Of a DNA stretch of 64,000 bases, positions 628 through 8,622 are shown piece by piece. This DNA comes from Deltaproteobacteria bacterium (GTDB taxonomy: Bacteria; Desulfobacterota; Binatia; UTPRO1), in contig JAJCZP010000237.1 of the NCBI GenBank assembly GCA_029262315.1, forward strand, positions 1-64,000, given 5' to 3'. Both the position numbers and the translations under genes were made by a program. How positions within the stretch are numbered: position 1 is the first letter of the stretch; each line of letters begins with the position of its first letter. The notes beneath the pieces were generated by a model. That model was not told where the DNA came from. It searched no databases and saw only the letters and a list, made by a program, of their open reading frames with translations.

Positions 628-1494
628 TCAGCGCAAGAACCAGGCATCGCCGTCACAGCCGGCGATCTCCTCGCGCTCGAGTTTCCTGAGATGGGCAGTC
701 ACCGACATCCCCGCGGCGAAGTGCAGCGCCTCCGGGATGTCGACATAGATGCGAGCGACGATGGCGGGCACGTCGGCAACAGCCTCGCGAAGGCACGCGA
801 GGATCTGCTGCTCGCGAAGTTCGCGGTGTGCAATGTACTCCTCGATCTTCCGTTTGGGATCGCGGATAGCCGGGCCATGCGCCGGGTAGATCACCTGCGC
901 GTCGAGAGCGAGTAGGCGGCGAAGCGATGCGAGATAATCTGCGAGATCGCCGTCATCGGGGATGACGGTCGTCCCCGCACCCAGCACGACATCGCCGGTA
1001 AACAATGCCCTCTCCTCCTCGAGATAGAAGCACAGGTGGTCGGAGGCATGCCCGGGCGTCCAGATCGCACGGAGCGTTGCCCCGTCGGTCTCGACGACAT
1101 CACCATCCACGAGCACACCGGTGGCGCGCGGATCGTCAGGACGCCGGGGATGGGTCATCTTCAACACCGGCTGCGTACCGAGCAGGGACTGAATCTGCTC
1201 GACACCTCCGATGTGATCAGGATGATCGTGCGTCATCACGATCGCCTGCAACCCCTCGGTCGGCCGTGTATCGCGAACCGCGGCCGCGAACACCGGCGCG
1301 TAGGCGTCAACGCCCTGCCCCGTGTCGAGCATCAGCGGCCGCGAACCGGTACCGACGATGTACGTGTTCGTCCCCGGCCCCGTGAACATGCCCGGGTTCT
1401 GGCCGAGCACGACGGTGACCCGCTCGCTCTGGACCAGCGCGTCGGGAAGCGAGAGCCCGAGCATGGAATCGGTCACTACCCGGGTCCTACTCAT
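628..1494 (-). CDS. MBL-fold metallo-hydrolase (LACTB2-like)
   Basis: This 288-residue metallo-beta-lactamase-fold hydrolase has the complete metal motif THDHPDHIGG at residues 88-97. Later ligands appear in the GHASDH and FTGDVV segments and the YPAHGP histidine. The C-terminus is a small winged-helix-like segment ending in a Lys/Arg/Glu-rich helix, which is the architecture of LACTB2-like proteins (hydrolases or endoribonucleases) rather than glyoxalase II. The likely role is hydrolysis of a thioester, ester or phosphodiester in the cytoplasm; the substrate is unknown. It sits between an F420 oxidoreductase and an acyl-CoA dehydrogenase on the same strand, so a role in acyl-CoA metabolism is possible but inferred only from position. 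Confidence 0.85.
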   Translation of the reverse strand: MSRTRVVTDSMLGLSLPDALVQSERVTVVLGQNPGMFTGPGTNTYIVGTGSRPLMLDTGQGVDAYAPVFAAAVRDTRPTEGLQAIVMTHDHPDHIGGVEQIQSLLGTQPVLKMTHPRRPDDPRATGVLVDGDVVETDGATLRAIWTPGHASDHLCFYLEEERALFTGDVVLGAGTTVIPDDGDLADYLASLRRLLALDAQVIYPAHGPAIRDPKRKIEEYIAHRELREQQILACLREAVADVPAIVARIYVDIPEALHFAAGMSVTAHLRKLEREEIAGCDGDAWFLR

Positions 1495-1587: not shown

Positions 1588-2814
1588 CTAGTGCGCCAGC
1601 AGGCTCCGCGCGATTTGCGAGATCTGGATCTCGTCGGTACCGGCGTATATCTGCAACACCTTGGCATCGCGGCACAGCTGCTCGACCTGAAACTCGGCCA
1701 TGTACCCGTTGCCACCAAAGAGCTGCACCGCCTCGAGCGCGACCTCCATCGCCGCCTGCGCCGCGTAGAGCTTGCAGGCCGAGGCTTCCGCCAGATCCAA
1801 GGACTTGCCGGACGCGATGATCTCGATCTGTCGAAAGATGATGTTCTGGAGGTTCATGCGCGCAACCTCCATCTTGGCGAGCTTGAGCTGAATGAGCTGA
1901 AACTCACCGATGGGCTTCCCGAACGCGACCCGGGTACGCGCGTAGTCAACGCTAAGCTCGCGGCACTGCTCGACGATGCCGAGCGCCATCGCCGCGACAC
2001 CGGCACGCTCCATCGAAAAGCTCGCCTTCGTGCCGGCGCGCGCCGGAGAGTCTTCGGTCTCGCCGAGGAGGCGTTCTTTCTCGACCTGCACATCGTCGAG
2101 AAAGAGTTCGCCGGTCGGCGATGAGTGCAGGCCCATCTTCCGCATCGGCGCCGACTGGTTCAGACCGGCCATGCCACGATCGAGCACGAACGTGAGCATC
2201 TTCCGGTCTTTGGCCTCGCTCCCGTCGTCGAGCTTGCAGATGAACACGATCGTGTCGGCGTACGGACCGTTGGTGATGAACGTCTTGTTGCCGTTCAAGA
2301 CATAGCCGTCGCCATTCCGACGCGCGGTGGACTTCATGCCTCCGAACGCATCCGAGCCGGAACCGGGCTCGGTAATCGCCCAAGCGCCGATTTTCTCGAA
2401 CGTGAGCAACGGGAGCGCCCAGCGCTCCTTCTGACGGATCGTCCCCTTCGACATGATCGCCGAGGCCGTCAACCCCATGCTGACGCCCATGGCGGTTACG
2501 ATCCCTGGGCAGTAGCGGCAGAGTTCGATGATCGGGATGAGCTGCATCCCAGCCGTGTCGATGTCGCCCTCACGACGCTTGCCGTTCTCGGCCACGCCGC
2601 CGTTCTTCTCGGCCGCGCGCTCTCTCGCGATACGCTTCTCGAACGTGGCGCGAGCAGCCTCGTCCATACCGAAGCTGGTGAACATCTTGCGAATGACATC
2701 GTACGGTGGACTATCACCGTGCTCGAGCTCTTCGAGATTCGGTTTAATTTCCGTCTCCACGAACTTGCGCATGGCGTCGCGGATCATCACATGCTGCTCG
2801 GTCCATTCGATCAT
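1588..2814 (-). CDS. Acyl-CoA dehydrogenase (IVD/LCAD-type active site)
   Basis: A 408-residue FAD-dependent acyl-CoA dehydrogenase. The substrate and flavin motif AITEPGSGSDA spans about 147-157, and the C-terminal FAD contacts are in FGGNGYMAEF and YAGTDEIQ. The position that holds the catalytic glutamate in medium-chain enzymes is alanine (A391, in IYAGTDEI). Glu269 in the SMERAG helix matches the alternative base used by isovaleryl- and long-chain enzymes, so the protein should be active. Residues about 50-90 form a charged insertion (ARATFEKRIARERAAEKNGG) not usual in the family. A good ribosome site (AAGGAG) precedes the ATG at 2814, and the upstream histone-fold gene ends 9 bp away, suggesting co-transcription. 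Confidence 0.93.
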   Translation of the reverse strand: MIEWTEQHVMIRDAMRKFVETEIKPNLEELEHGDSPPYDVIRKMFTSFGMDEAARATFEKRIARERAAEKNGGVAENGKRREGDIDTAGMQLIPIIELCRYCPGIVTAMGVSMGLTASAIMSKGTIRQKERWALPLLTFEKIGAWAITEPGSGSDAFGGMKSTARRNGDGYVLNGNKTFITNGPYADTIVFICKLDDGSEAKDRKMLTFVLDRGMAGLNQSAPMRKMGLHSSPTGELFLDDVQVEKERLLGETEDSPARAGTKASFSMERAGVAAMALGIVEQCRELSVDYARTRVAFGKPIGEFQLIQLKLAKMEVARMNLQNIIFRQIEIIASGKSLDLAEASACKLYAAQAAMEVALEAVQLFGGNGYMAEFQVEQLCRDAKVLQIYAGTDEIQISQIARSLLAH

Positions 2815-2823
2815 CGGAACTCC

Positions 2824-3336
2824 TTAGAAATCGCGAGCCATCACGGTCTTGCGCTCGGCTTCACGGGCGCGAACGATCGCATCGTCGCAGAGCACACGCA
2901 ATCGATCCGACAGGGCGGCGATGACATCCTCCGACGTATTCATGCCGGACGTATGCTTGATGTACGCTTTGAGTTTGGAGACGACCACGAGCACGTCACG
3001 GGGTGCCGGCTCGGATGATCCCGTCGGGGGAACGTATTCGGATTCCATCGGACGACCTCCGGTGCGGGGCGCTGCGCGCATACGCGGCGCGGACGGTGAA
3101 GAAGCCTCTTGCGCTCGACGCCAGGCCTCGGCGGTCGGCGCGGTCTCTTCCTCGGCCCAGGCTTCGCGATGACGCACGACCGGGAGATGGGCGTCCCAGC
3201 ATTCGACCGAACAGAACACGAACGGTGACGTGCCTCGGTTGCAGGTCGAGACGCTGCACGCGTAGTACGCACACGTAAAGGCGAGTGGCGTCTTGCAGGT
3301 GCTGCAGCGACGCCAGGTCTGCTCCTCGGACGACAC
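2824..3336 (-). CDS. Zinc-finger plus histone-fold protein
   Basis: A 170-residue two-domain protein starting at GTG. Residues 11-56 hold seven cysteines (11, 14, 22, 27, 32, 42, 46) and histidines 50 and 56, in the spacing of a treble-clef or MYND/ZZ-like zinc finger ending FCSVECWDAHLP. Residues about 62-112 are a Pro/Arg/Ala linker. Residues 114-170 (VLVVVSKLKAYIKHTSGMNT onward, ending RKTVMARDF) closely match the single histone fold of small bacterial histones such as Bdellovibrio Bd0055: a helix, a GMNTS loop, a long helix, then the RKTVxxRD motif. Predicted role: a zinc-stabilised DNA-binding or chromatin protein. It lies between a Zn-ADH gene (62-bp gap) and an acyl-CoA dehydrogenase gene (9-bp gap). 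The fold assignment comes from motif reading, not a search. Confidence 0.8.
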   Translation of the reverse strand: MSSEEQTWRRCSTCKTPLAFTCAYYACSVSTCNRGTSPFVFCSVECWDAHLPVVRHREAWAEEETAPTAEAWRRAQEASSPSAPRMRAAPRTGGRPMESEYVPPTGSSEPAPRDVLVVVSKLKAYIKHTSGMNTSEDVIAALSDRLRVLCDDAIVRAREAERKTVMARDF

Positions 3337-3398: not shown

Positions 3399-4493
3399 TC
3401 AGTCGAAGACGATGACGCTGCGCGCGACCTCGCCCTTTTCCATGGCCTCGAACGCCTCGTTCACATCCTCGAGCTTAATGCGACGCGACACGAGCTCGTC
3501 GATCTTGAGCCGCTTCTGCATGTACAGATCCACGAGGCCCGGCATGTCGCGCCGGATGTTCGCGGAACCGTACAGCGAGCCGATCAACGACTTCTCTTCG
3601 AGCGCGAGCGAAAAGCCCTGCACGGAGACCTCGGTTCCCATGCCAACGACCCCGACGACCACCGCTTTGCCGCCGCGCTTCACGGAGAGGAAACACTGAT
3701 TGATGACGGCCGGCGACCCGATGACCTCGAACGCGTAGTCGACGCCGAGACCGCCAGTCAGGGCGCGAATCGCCTCGGGCACGTCGCCCGCATCAGCGGC
3801 ATTGATGATGTCGGTGGCACCGAAGGTTTTGGCAAGTTCGAGCTTCTGCGGCGAGAGATCCACCGCGATGACACGCGAGGCGCCGCAGAGGATCGCGCCC
3901 TGCACGACGTTCAGGCCGACACCGCCGCAACCAAAGACGGCAACCGTCTCGCCCGGCCGGACTTTGGCGGTGTTCATGACTGCACCAACCCCTGTGGTCA
4001 CACCGCACCCCACGAGACAGGCGCGATCGAGCGGAACATCGTCGGGAATCTTGATGGCGGAGGTCGCACGCACGACGGTCCGCTCCGCGAACGAGGCCAC
4101 ACCGGCCATACGCATGATGTCCGTGCCGTTCTTCTTGAAGGTGAACTCTTCGCCGGTCATGGCAGCCTGCATACCGACGTCGCAGAGGTGCGTCGTACCC
4201 GCGTTGCAGTAGGCACAGTTGCCGCAGTTCGCGACCCACGCAAGAATGACGTGGTCGCCGGGCTTGAGATCGTCGACGCCCTTCCCAACCTCTTCCACAA
4301 CACCGGCGCCCTCGTGCCCGAGAACCACCGGGGGCGGAAACGGCAGCTTCGCCTGCATCACCGACAGGTCGGAATGGCACACGCCGCTCGCCGCGACCTT
4401 GACGAGAATCTCGCCCTCGCGTGGAGGGTTTACGTCAACGTCCTCGATCTTGAGCGGCTGATTGAAGTCGTACAGTACGGCGGCTTTGGCCAT
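3399..4493 (-). CDS. Zn-dependent alcohol dehydrogenase (class III/NDMA-like MDR family)
   Basis: A 364-residue medium-chain dehydrogenase/reductase. Visible features are the catalytic zinc Cys in SGVCHSDL, His-Glu in LGHEGAGVV, the four structural-zinc cysteines in NCGNCAYCN and HLCD, and the Rossmann motif FGCGGVGLNVV. Length and motif order match class III-type and mycobacterial-type Zn-alcohol dehydrogenases acting on primary alcohols or hydroxymethyl adducts with NAD. It is cytoplasmic and is the most upstream gene of the likely run ADH, histone-fold protein, acyl-CoA dehydrogenase, MBL hydrolase. An AAGGAG site lies just upstream of the ATG at 4493. The specific alcohol is not determinable. 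Confidence 0.93.
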   Translation of the reverse strand: MAKAAVLYDFNQPLKIEDVDVNPPREGEILVKVAASGVCHSDLSVMQAKLPFPPPVVLGHEGAGVVEEVGKGVDDLKPGDHVILAWVANCGNCAYCNAGTTHLCDVGMQAAMTGEEFTFKKNGTDIMRMAGVASFAERTVVRATSAIKIPDDVPLDRACLVGCGVTTGVGAVMNTAKVRPGETVAVFGCGGVGLNVVQGAILCGASRVIAVDLSPQKLELAKTFGATDIINAADAGDVPEAIRALTGGLGVDYAFEVIGSPAVINQCFLSVKRGGKAVVVGVVGMGTEVSVQGFSLALEEKSLIGSLYGSANIRRDMPGLVDLYMQKRLKIDELVSRRIKLEDVNEAFEAMEKGEVARSVIVFD

Positions 4494-6321: not shown

Positions 6322-6765
6322 CTAGAAGCTCTCCTTCCAGGCCACCATGTTGGTCTTGCCGTTCACCCGCTGGAGGAGCGCCTCGATCACCCGGCGAGCG
6401 TTGGCGGGCCCGTTGGCGGTCGAGACGACGCGCAACGTAGGCGGACTGCTGCCGACCAACGCACTCGCCGCCACCGCATACGTCCCGCTCCCGAAAGCCA
6501 CCGGCGCGACCAACTCGCTGTCGCCCTCGGCGAAAGCGGATGCGAAGGCGGCGCCGTCGTCGCACAAGCTCCAGGCGTGATCGATGCCGGCCTCGGCGAT
6601 GTACAAGGTCTGCGTCCCGGTCACGAAGTTTCCGGTGATCTGGAGATCGGTACGGCTAAGCATCAGGCCGCTGCTTCCCAACGCGACCAGGAGAGTCGCC
6701 CCCATCAGCACGGTCACGAGGACGAAGCCACGCTCGGCGCTTCGAGCATCAGGGTTACCCCTCAC
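6322..6765 (-). CDS. Type IV minor pilin, PilX-like
   Basis: This 147-residue protein starts at GTG 6765, just after the PilW-like gene and preceded by AAGGGG. Residues about 12-35 are a pilin-type hydrophobic helix (ERGFVLVTVLMGATLLVAL), with a prepilin-peptidase-like site before the Phe. It is followed by the typical PilX segment GNFVTGTQTLYIAEAGIDHA. The rest is a small globular domain. Minor pilins of this type help initiate or tune type IV pilus assembly. It is last in a four-gene operon; no pilY1 or major pilin follows. Confidence 0.82.
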   Translation of the reverse strand: MRGNPDARSAERGFVLVTVLMGATLLVALGSSGLMLSRTDLQITGNFVTGTQTLYIAEAGIDHAWSLCDDGAAFASAFAEGDSELVAPVAFGSGTYAVAASALVGSSPPTLRVVSTANGPANARRVIEALLQRVNGKTNMVAWKESF

Positions 6766-6767
6766 GG

Positions 6768-7619
6768 CTACCCCTTGCCGCTCTTGCTCGAGCCCGACCC
6801 GCTACTGCCCGAATCGCTCTTGCCCGAGCCCGACCCACTACTACCAGAATCGCTCTTGCCCGAGCTCGACCCGCTACCGCTCTTGCCCGACCCGGAGCCG
6901 GACCCACTGCTGCTCGAACCGCCCGAACTGCCGCTGTCGTCGTCTTCCTCTTCGCATTCGAACCCGGAGTTCCGGACCAGCGCTTCAGCCTCCAGCCCCG
7001 ACACGATATCGGCCGCCCCATCGGGCCGAGGGTTCGCCTGAACTACCCGCACGTCGACAGCAACCGAGCGGATATCCGCGAGCGTCCCCGTCTCCGCCCC
7101 GTTTCCATCGAGATACCGGAAGATGTTGGACGACGAAACGTGTGCCATGACCGGCACCGCCGAATCGCCGGCCTCGCCGACAACCGTTCGTCGAATCTCC
7201 TGCGAGCCTCCGTCGTACGCGTACGTGATGTCCTCTCCCGCGCCGATCGCGCCGTCCTCGTCCCAATCGATCTGTATCCGGATGCGATCGGTCTGCGCCG
7301 CGATGACCGGCGCGATCTCGTTCGGACACGGCCCGCTATAGCCCGCCATGCGAATCTCGCGCAGCATCACGTCGAGGGTCGCCCGCGTCGCCGATTGCGC
7401 CTCGACGCGGGCTTCCTGCTCCCGCATCGCGAACATCTGCGTGCGCTGAAAACCACTCAGGGCCATCAAGATCAGCATCGCCAATCCCGCCACGACCAGA
7501 AACTCCATCAGTGTGAACCCACGCTGGCCGATCCTACCTCGGCATCGACGACGCGCGTTCGATGGCCGCCACGAGAGCCGCGCACGCGCGCGCGAAGGGC
7601 CCAAGGATCGTGCGCTCAC
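6768..7619 (-). CDS. PilW-like minor pilin with Ser/Gly/Lys repeat tail
   Basis: A 283-residue protein. The start is placed at GTG 7619, which overlaps the stop of the PilV-like gene (GTGA) and has a strong GGGAGGAG site a few bases upstream. A prepilin motif (QRGFTLMEFLVVAGLAMLIL) lies near residues 31-50, followed by the PilW region (TLDVMLREIRMAGYSG). The globular part ends near an FECEEEDDD segment. After that comes an unusual tail of about 50 residues made almost only of Ser, Gly and Lys, with a 12-residue unit (KSDSGSSGSGSG) repeated. The body predicts a minor pilin. The tail is not part of any family I know and may be a surface-exposed, charged, flexible extension. Confidence 0.85.
   Translation of the reverse strand: MSARSLGPSRARARLSWRPSNARRRCRGRIGQRGFTLMEFLVVAGLAMLILMALSGFQRTQMFAMREQEARVEAQSATRATLDVMLREIRMAGYSGPCPNEIAPVIAAQTDRIRIQIDWDEDGAIGAGEDITYAYDGGSQEIRRTVVGEAGDSAVPVMAHVSSSNIFRYLDGNGAETGTLADIRSVAVDVRVVQANPRPDGAADIVSGLEAEALVRNSGFECEEEDDDSGSSGGSSSSGSGSGSGKSGSGSSSGKSDSGSSGSGSGKSDSGSSGSGSSKSGKG
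6771..6935 (-). repeat. Low-complexity Ser/Gly/Lys coding repeat
   Basis: This segment encodes the C-terminal tail of the PilW-like pilin. Two near-identical 36-bp units encode KSDSGSSGSGS(G/S), flanked by degenerate copies. Such repeats can expand or contract by slippage, so tail length could vary between strains. The boundaries are approximate. Confidence 0.7.
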
Positions 7620-8014
7620 ACCGGCTCCTCCCGCACGAGAGTGCTCATCGCCACCTGCCGCCCCTGGTAGTCCGACCACGTAACGACAACTTGAACACGG
7701 CGCGTACCGACGGGGACGTTGCCGTCATCGTCGTTCGTCGCGACGGTCCATGTGCGTGTGAACTGCCAGCTCGGATGCTCGGGCATCGAGATGGTATCGA
7801 TGCCACCGGCCAGCGTCGCTGGATCCAGCGCGCGCAACTCCTCGATCTTGTCAGCGGCGACCGTAGCTCCAATGGTCGTGTTGTGGCTCATCTTGTTCGC
7901 CCGCTGAATCCCAACCGTCGAGTGGCCGATACCGAGCGCTGCGATCGCCAGCAAGCCCACAGCCATGGCCGTCTCCATCAGGGTGGCGCCACGCTGATTC
8001 AACAGGGCGCTCAC
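7616..8014 (-). CDS. Type IV minor pilin, PilV-like
   Basis: A 132-residue minor pilin. NQRGATLMETAMAVGLLAIA at about 6-25 is a class III signal peptide with the Glu at the expected +5 position, followed by the PilV-like stretch ATVAADKIEELRALDPA. The start is GTG 8014, overlapping the stop of the upstream FimT-like gene (GTGA). Its own stop overlaps the GTG of the PilW-like gene, so translation of the four genes is coupled. Predicted role: a component of the pilus tip or initiation complex in the inner membrane and fibre. Confidence 0.85.
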   Translation of the reverse strand: MSALLNQRGATLMETAMAVGLLAIAALGIGHSTVGIQRANKMSHNTTIGATVAADKIEELRALDPATLAGGIDTISMPEHPSWQFTRTWTVATNDDDGNVPVGTRRVQVVVTWSDYQGRQVAMSTLVREEPV

Positions 8015-8490
8015 TCGGCGACATCCCCCACACTCACTTGACCACCGAACGTCACGGTCACCGCCTTCGTGCTACCGTAGCCGTTCGCCACGATGATACT
8101 GACGAGCGCATCTGTATCGACCCATCCGCTGGGTCGAAAAGTCACGTCGGGATCCGGATCGATGGAAAGGCTCACTCCGCTGGGCAAGAGACCGGGGGCA
8201 CCCTGCGCTTCGTACGTGCCATCCACGTCCTTCTCGAGTTGGTACTGCGCCCCCGAATACGCGATGCGGTAGCGTCGGTTCTCCGCAACCGCCCGCATGC
8301 GCGCGCGACTCAGATCGGCCGCGACCTGGCGAGCCGCACCGTGCAGCTCGAACACCGCGAGCTGCTCACGCATGACAGGTACCGCGATCGACGCGAGCGT
8401 CAACATCCCCGCAACGGTCACGATCATCTCCACAGCGCTAAAGCCGCCACGATCGGTGGCGCACCTCCGCATTCCCCTCTCGCCCCTCAT
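8011..8490 (-). CDS. FimT/GspH-like minor pseudopilin
   Basis: A 159-residue protein, first gene of the minor-pilin operon. The ATG at 8490 follows GGAAGGGA, which supports it over longer upstream starts. DRGGFSAVEMIVTVAGMLTL is the pilin-type N-terminal helix with Glu5. AARQVAADLSRARMRAVAENR is the GspH/FimT signature, and the C-terminal part is a beta-rich domain ending in VTVTFGGQVSV. FimT proteins are minor pilins of type IV pili and can bind DNA in some naturally competent bacteria; that specific role is not shown here. Confidence 0.83.
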   Translation of the reverse strand: MRGERGMRRCATDRGGFSAVEMIVTVAGMLTLASIAVPVMREQLAVFELHGAARQVAADLSRARMRAVAENRRYRIAYSGAQYQLEKDVDGTYEAQGAPGLLPSGVSLSIDPDPDVTFRPSGWVDTDALVSIIVANGYGSTKAVTVTFGGQVSVGDVAE

Positions 8491-8622
8491 CACAGTCCCT
8501 TCCGACCATGATCCGGGAAGCGCGTGCTCTTGAGAAGCTGCGAAGGCACACGGACGCACATCTCGCATGACATCGCGCATGAGCCTCGAGGCGTCGCGAC
8601 GCCGCGCGTGACGGCCGCGCGT

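What the first reader, a model, noticed from the sequence alone, without database searches (positions are those of the whole stretch)
2824..3336. Zinc finger fused to a bacterial histone fold, inside a catabolic operon
Cys/His positions 11-56 build a zinc finger. Residues 114-170 carry the single histone-fold pattern (SKLKAYIK, GMNTS, RKTVMARD) known from small bacterial histones. A linked zinc-finger/histone protein fits the class that recent surveys of prokaryotic histones call ZZ histones, as far as I recall, and is experimentally nearly unexplored. Its position between an alcohol dehydrogenase and an acyl-CoA dehydrogenase gene, with a 9-bp gap to the latter, is unexpected for a nucleoid protein. 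It could be a local regulator rather than bulk chromatin.
Basis: partly seen in the sequence, partly recalled or inferred. Interest (0 to 1): 0.82.

Follow-up and report, generated by a model that had tools for sequence, protein, structure and literature searches.

The report
ZZ zinc-finger histone, known family
This gene encodes a small bacterial histone joined to a zinc-binding domain, a member of the already described but experimentally untested "ZZ histone" family; its place among fat- and alcohol-metabolism genes is peculiar to this one genome and probably has no special meaning.

Summary
The gene lies on the MINUS strand (2824-3336, GTG start, 170 aa). Eight zinc ligands (C11, C14, C27, C32, C42, C46, H50, H56) are invariant in 39 homologues. 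Residues 114-170 match the solved bacterial histones HBb and HLp by sequence and by predicted fold. The zinc-finger model's best PDB matches, individually weak, are ZZ domains.

The operon argument fails. The gene sits 9 bp before an acyl-CoA dehydrogenase gene and downstream of an alcohol dehydrogenase gene on the same strand, but none of about 45 related loci shares this neighbourhood. In relatives the orthologous dehydrogenases lie on other contigs.

Beyond the survey text I read: (i) it is the only detectable histone in a near-complete genome with four HU/IHF-type proteins; (ii) the zinc finger also exists alone, including in genomes without any detectable histone, so it has a role of its own; (iii) an internal ATG with a strong Shine-Dalgarno precedes the histone domain here and in some distant relatives, not in close ones (suggestive only).

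Most likely function: a low-abundance DNA-binding histone dimer carrying a zinc-dependent protein-binding arm. New member of a known kind.

The parts
2824..3336 (-). ZZ histone gene, 170 aa, GTG start at 3336, TAA stop
3169..3306 (-). zinc finger, residues 11-56, eight ligands C11 C14 C27 C32 C42 C46 H50 H56
   Evidence: invariant in 39/39 homologues; model pLDDT about 90; best PDB fold matches are ZZ domains
2998..3135 (-). variable linker, residues 68-113 (about 16% mean identity; low model confidence in residues 81-120)
2827..2997 (-). alpha3-type histone fold, residues 114-170 (helices 119-130, 137-159, 167-169; R162-K-T...D169 motif)
3046..3062 (-). possible internal start: GGAGGT, 6-nt spacer, ATG (codon M97); would give a 74-aa histone-only product
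   Evidence: sequence; SD energy -10.7 kcal/mol, synonymous-recoding p=0.037; not conserved in close relatives
1588..2814 (-). acyl-CoA dehydrogenase gene, 9 bp downstream of the histone gene
3399..4493 (-). zinc-binding alcohol dehydrogenase gene, 62 bp upstream of the histone gene
628..1494 (-). metallo-beta-lactamase-fold hydrolase gene, next downstream on the same strand

Best explanation
It is a ZZ histone. The C-terminal alpha3-type histone fold most likely forms a homodimer that binds and bends DNA as HBb does (by homology: HBb binds DNA as a dimer without sequence specificity). The N-terminal ZZ-type zinc finger, on a flexible linker, most likely binds a peptide or protein partner and brings it to DNA, or tethers the histone to a partner complex. 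Because the genome also has four HU/IHF-type proteins and the one published ZZ histone with expression data is weakly expressed, it is more likely an accessory or regulatory chromatin protein than the bulk nucleoid organiser. Shown here: domain architecture, invariant zinc ligands, histone and ZZ-like predicted folds, sole detectable histone, lack of conserved neighbourhood. Inferred: zinc binding, dimerisation, DNA binding and bending, partner binding.
For: Histone similarity by sequence and fold (HBb 9ezz target TM-score 0.83, rmsd 1.1 A; HLp 9qt0 0.93, 1.0 A). RD-clamp R162/D169 and T164 invariant; alpha1 positions 121 and 123 are always K/R. Helix 3 is only about 3 residues, as defined for alpha3 histones. 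FtF tetramer residues are not conserved, matching the bacterial-dimer-like class. Zinc ligands invariant; ZZ domains of p62 and BIG are among the top PDB fold matches of the finger model. The finger is as conserved as the histone (61% and 62% mean identity to the window) and the linker is not (16%), and the finger persists without a histone, so it has its own selected function. Only histone found in its genome; four HU/IHF-family matches. [quoted passage not shown] bacteriovorus (PMC11390915).
Against: No direct test of DNA or zinc binding exists here. The ZZ fold matches are weak (E=0.05, query TM-score about 0.4), Pfam gives no ZZ hit but weak zf-FLZ/FCS/HIT hits, and MYND domains appear next in the fold list. 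Schwab et al. [quoted passage not shown] Expression in this organism is unknown.
Confidence: 0.72

Rival explanations
1. It is a dedicated local regulator of the alcohol/acyl-CoA dehydrogenase operon in which it lies.
For: Same strand, 62-bp and 9-bp gaps, likely co-transcription and translational coupling with the acyl-CoA dehydrogenase gene; no promoter-like site found on that strand (a weak test for a GC-rich genome).
Against: No related locus shares these neighbours. Orthologous ADH (71-74%) and ACAD (76-81%) genes in relatives lie on contigs other than the ZZ histone's. The survey says alpha3 histones are usually single-gene operons.
Confidence: 0.07
2. It is a bulk nucleoid histone of this lineage, as HBb is in Bdellovibrio.
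For: It is the only HBb-like histone detectable in the genome, and the DNA-contact and RKT motifs are kept.
Against: Four HU/IHF-type proteins are present; most genomes of the class lack any copy (34/148 have the zinc finger, 30 with histone), and at least three near-complete relatives keep the finger but no histone; ZZ histone expression is low in B. bacteriovorus.
Confidence: 0.15
3. Two-product gene: besides the full protein, an internal ATG (M97) yields a 74-aa histone-only protein, so that the cell has ZZ-histone and bare-histone subunits that can mix in dimers.
For: GGAGGT 6 nt before ATG97, -10.7 kcal/mol, stronger than the SD of the main GTG start (-3.9). Only 1% of 400 internal ATGs in the window reach that energy; synonymous-recoding p=0.037. 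Met codons 3-10 codons before the histone, with SD-like upstream sequence, also occur in the L002/L003/L044 group (p=0.024, 0.76, 0.0005), in Bdellovibrionales-type L013-L019, and in L007 and L009. In the genomes of L013-L015 and L017-L019 the ZZ histone is the only HBb-like histone.
Against: Absent in the closest relatives (L031-L036) and in most of the 45 genes. In the Bdellovibrionales group, L007 and L009 the SD is mostly no stronger than synonymous recoding predicts. Several sites were examined, so the window p-value is not strong. A relic of the fused histone's former start is an alternative.
Confidence: 0.12

Closest known systems
ZZ histones (alpha3 histone family; Schwab et al. 2024, PMC11390915; example D0LYE7 of Haliangium ochraceum). 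Bd3044 of B. bacteriovorus is probably the ZZ histone of that strain (my inference)
   Same: N-terminal finger with C4 and C2H2 ligand sets, C-terminal alpha3 histone fold, HBb-like sequence, no FtF tetramer residues.
   Different: Found inside a tight same-strand gene cluster instead of a single-gene operon; probably from Binatia (uncultured). In this family the fourth Cys is the one corresponding to D0LYE7 residue 55 by spacing, while the paper prints C53 (possible misprint, not verified).
HBb / Bd0055, bacterial dimer histone (PDB 8cmp, 8fvx, 9ezz, 9f0e)
   Same: 48% identity over the 56-residue histone fold, rmsd 1.1 A, RKTVMARD motif.
   Different: HBb has no zinc finger, is highly expressed and probably essential.
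HLp, FtF histone of Leptospira perolatii (PDB 9qt0)
   Same: Closest solved histone by single-sequence search; same fold.
   Different: Tetramer residue N53 is never N in this family and R49 is not conserved.
Eukaryotic ZZ domains (p62/SQSTM1, BIG, p300)
   Same: Best fold matches of the finger model; two-zinc architecture per the survey.
   Different: No detectable Pfam ZZ similarity; pocket residues reported not conserved.

Membership tests
ZZ histone | N-terminal zinc finger with C4 and C2H2 ligand sets | tested here: met
   Eight ligands present and invariant in 39/39; spacing agrees with the published D0LYE7 ligands except one Cys position. Metal binding itself not tested.
ZZ histone | finger has ZZ-type fold | tested here: inconclusive
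   Top PDB matches are p62 and, lower, BIG ZZ domains but E=0.05-0.8; Pfam gives no ZZ hit.
ZZ histone | C-terminal bacterial-dimer-like histone fold | tested here: met
alpha3 histone | alpha3 helix truncated to 3-4 residues | tested here: met
   helix 167-169 in the model
alpha3 histone | RKTxxxxD-type motif | tested here: met
   R162, T164, D169 in 39/39
FtF histone | conserved R and N forming the dimer-dimer interface | tested here: not met
   N equivalent is A160 here and never N in 39; R equivalent variable; the residue mapping was made by hand from the alignment
histone (functional) | dimerisation and DNA binding | not testable with these tools
   no multimer prediction with DNA and no bench data

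The most novel reading that the evidence does not exclude
The gene makes two proteins, a ZZ histone and a histone-only subunit from the internal start at M97, so that one gene supplies both a bare DNA-binding histone and a zinc-finger-tagged version that can heterodimerise. This would be a bacterial counterpart of histone variants.
Probability: 0.12. Interest if true: 0.65.

Novelty: new member of a known kind. Interest (0 to 1): 0.4.

Why it matters
ZZ histones are a predicted family for which I found no published biochemistry in the library searched. The comparison gives two testable leads: the ZZ finger is kept without any detectable histone in some near-complete genomes, and some distant relatives have separate finger and histone genes where others have the fusion. 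These suggest that finger and histone can work together but that the finger has its own target. The single-copy situation in this genome means a deletion would not be masked by another detectable histone.

Tried and rejected
Operon-specific regulator: rejected as a leading explanation because the neighbourhood is not conserved. Mobile element or phage origin: no match in the phage or plasmid collections; viral contigs gave only a phage-type single histone (L084) and a distant finger (L085). A second histone in the genome: none with PF00808, NF043032 or HBb; the first two models miss the ZZ histone itself, so only the HBb search is informative. Decayed histone downstream of stand-alone fingers: none found. 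MYND/HIT/FLZ identity of the finger: weak Pfam hits only; the fold search favours ZZ. Internal start as a family-wide feature: not supported.

Full report
Observation. The ORF at 2824-3336 is real and lies on the minus strand: 170 aa, GTG start at 3336. Single-sequence phmmer against the PDB gives the Leptospira histone HLp (9qt0, E=8.7e-9) and the Bdellovibrio histone HBb (8cmp, E=1.7e-7) over residues 108-170. A profile of 39 homologues gives HBb at E=2.8e-18 and reaches archaeal histones, HmvA clearly (E=7e-4) and HMf/HPhA only marginally (E=0.1-0.5). Pfam and NCBIfam single-sequence scans do not annotate the window protein.

Family. A scan of one genome per species found 28 related loci, mostly in MAGs labelled Deltaproteobacteria, Myxococcales/Polyangiaceae, Bdellovibrionales, Oligoflexia and Binatia. 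Searches of the window's own taxonomic class found the zinc finger in 34 of 148 genomes, 30 of them with the histone. The window genome probably belongs to Binatia: genome G049, told to be of the same class, carries the contig (13,476 bp, same gene) that the public record L008 titles Candidatus Binatia. Other titles in the set are clearly mislabelled (Klebsiella, Alphaproteobacteria), so this assignment is moderate.

Anatomy. In 39 full-length proteins the eight ligands C11, C14, C27, C32, C42, C46, H50, H56 are invariant, as are R162, T164 and D169 of the histone motif. Finger and histone are equally conserved (61% and 62% mean identity to the window) and the linker is not (16%). AlphaFold2 gives mean pLDDT 84, with the finger and its extension (residues about 10-80) and the histone confidently modelled and the linker not. 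Foldseek places the histone on HBb (rmsd 1.1 A, target TM-score 0.83) and HLp (1.0 A, 0.93). A separate model of the finger (pLDDT 85) matches ZZ domains of p62 first (E=0.05, prob 0.97) and then, much more weakly, BIG ZZ and MYND domains. The ZZ label is therefore the best fold assignment but a weak one by itself.

Comparison with the literature. Schwab et al. 2024 (PMC11390915) define ZZ histones by exactly this architecture, describe C4 and C2H2 sites, place them next to bacterial dimers and report low expression in B. bacteriovorus. They also state that alpha3 histones are usually single-gene operons. Hocher et al. 2023 (PMC10627809) report that B. bacteriovorus encodes Bd3044 as a second, longer and less abundant histone-fold protein; equating it with the ZZ histone is my inference. 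The window protein meets the sequence-level criteria I could test and fails the FtF tetramer criterion, as expected for this class.

Neighbourhood. In the window the order on the minus strand is alcohol dehydrogenase, 62 bp, ZZ histone, 9 bp, acyl-CoA dehydrogenase, 93 bp, metallo-beta-lactamase-fold gene. None of the roughly 45 related loci shows the ADH or ACAD orthologue next to the ZZ histone. In five genomes of the same taxonomic family the neighbours differ between genera, for example a glyoxalase-like gene and a hydrolase, an MFS transporter, or a SecA-type gene and an amidase-like gene, named by eye from the translations. ADH and ACAD orthologues of those genomes lie on contigs other than the ZZ gene's. 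Co-transcription in the window is plausible, but it carries no family-level signal of function.

Genome context. HBb as query finds only this gene in the 99.96% complete genome, which also has four HU/IHF-family matches. PF00808 and NF043032 searches do not recover the ZZ histone and so cannot exclude other divergent histones.

Zinc finger without histone. Stand-alone fingers of 71-111 aa occur in several loci. In one family of the class (f8), genomes G012, G017, G037 and G044 have a finger followed by a basic tail and no histone match anywhere. G024, of the same genus as G017 and G044, has the fusion, and its finger is 80-84% identical to the stand-alone ones but about 60% identical to another fused member of the family. 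This suggests loss (or gain) of the histone within the family while the finger was kept; no tree was built. In MAGs holding L023, L027 and L028 a separate small histone gene exists beside the stand-alone finger. I did not find stand-alone fingers mentioned in the passages of the survey that I read.

Possible internal start. Codon 97 is ATG preceded by GGAGGT with a 6-nt spacer. Its computed anti-SD energy, -10.7 kcal/mol, is stronger than that of the main start (-3.9) and is reached by 1% of 400 internal ATGs of the window. Met codons just before the histone with SD-like sequence also occur in L002/L003/L044, L007, L009 and the Bdellovibrionales group. Against synonymous recoding the signal is clear only for L044 (p=0.0005; listed there as L072, the same gene), marginal for L002 (0.024) and the window (0.037), and absent for most others; p-values are not corrected for the number of sites looked at. 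Close relatives L031-L036 lack it. I treat it as a lead only.

Verdict. A confirmed ZZ histone, a new member of a known and experimentally unexplored kind. The catabolic-operon angle does not survive gene-order comparison. The more useful leads are the histone-free fingers, the separate finger and histone genes in some relatives, and the possible second start.

Noticed in passing
L051, L053, L054, L055 (genomes G017, G012, G037, G044); L024, L026, L027, L028, L023: Stand-alone ZZ-type fingers without a histone; in the first four the histone is replaced by a short basic Arg-rich tail, and no HBb-like histone is detectable in those genomes.
   Followed up: partly
L013-L015, L017-L019 (Bdellovibrionales/Oligoflexia MAGs): Their ZZ histone has the most HBb-like histone domain (59-63% identity) and is the only HBb-like histone found in each genome; an ATG with SD-like sequence lies 7-8 codons before the histone domain.
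   Followed up: partly
L085:4914-5414: A viral contig encodes a protein with a related finger-like motif (CVACK...CCSGIDCG...FCSVECWENYEP) next to a ThyX-like gene; the two His ligands seem absent.
   Followed up: no
L084:4983-5276: A viral contig encodes a small single histone (phage-histone type, 49% to the window histone domain) beside genes that look like queuosine-type biosynthesis.
   Followed up: no
window 6322-8580, minus strand: Cluster of type IV pilin-like minor proteins, one with a long low-complexity Gly/Ser/Lys/Asp tail (6768-7679).
   Followed up: no
PMC11390915, Fig. 4 legend (compare window 3196-3213): Published fourth Cys of the C4 site of D0LYE7 is C53; by spacing the invariant Cys of this family would be residue 55, possibly a misprint.
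   Followed up: no
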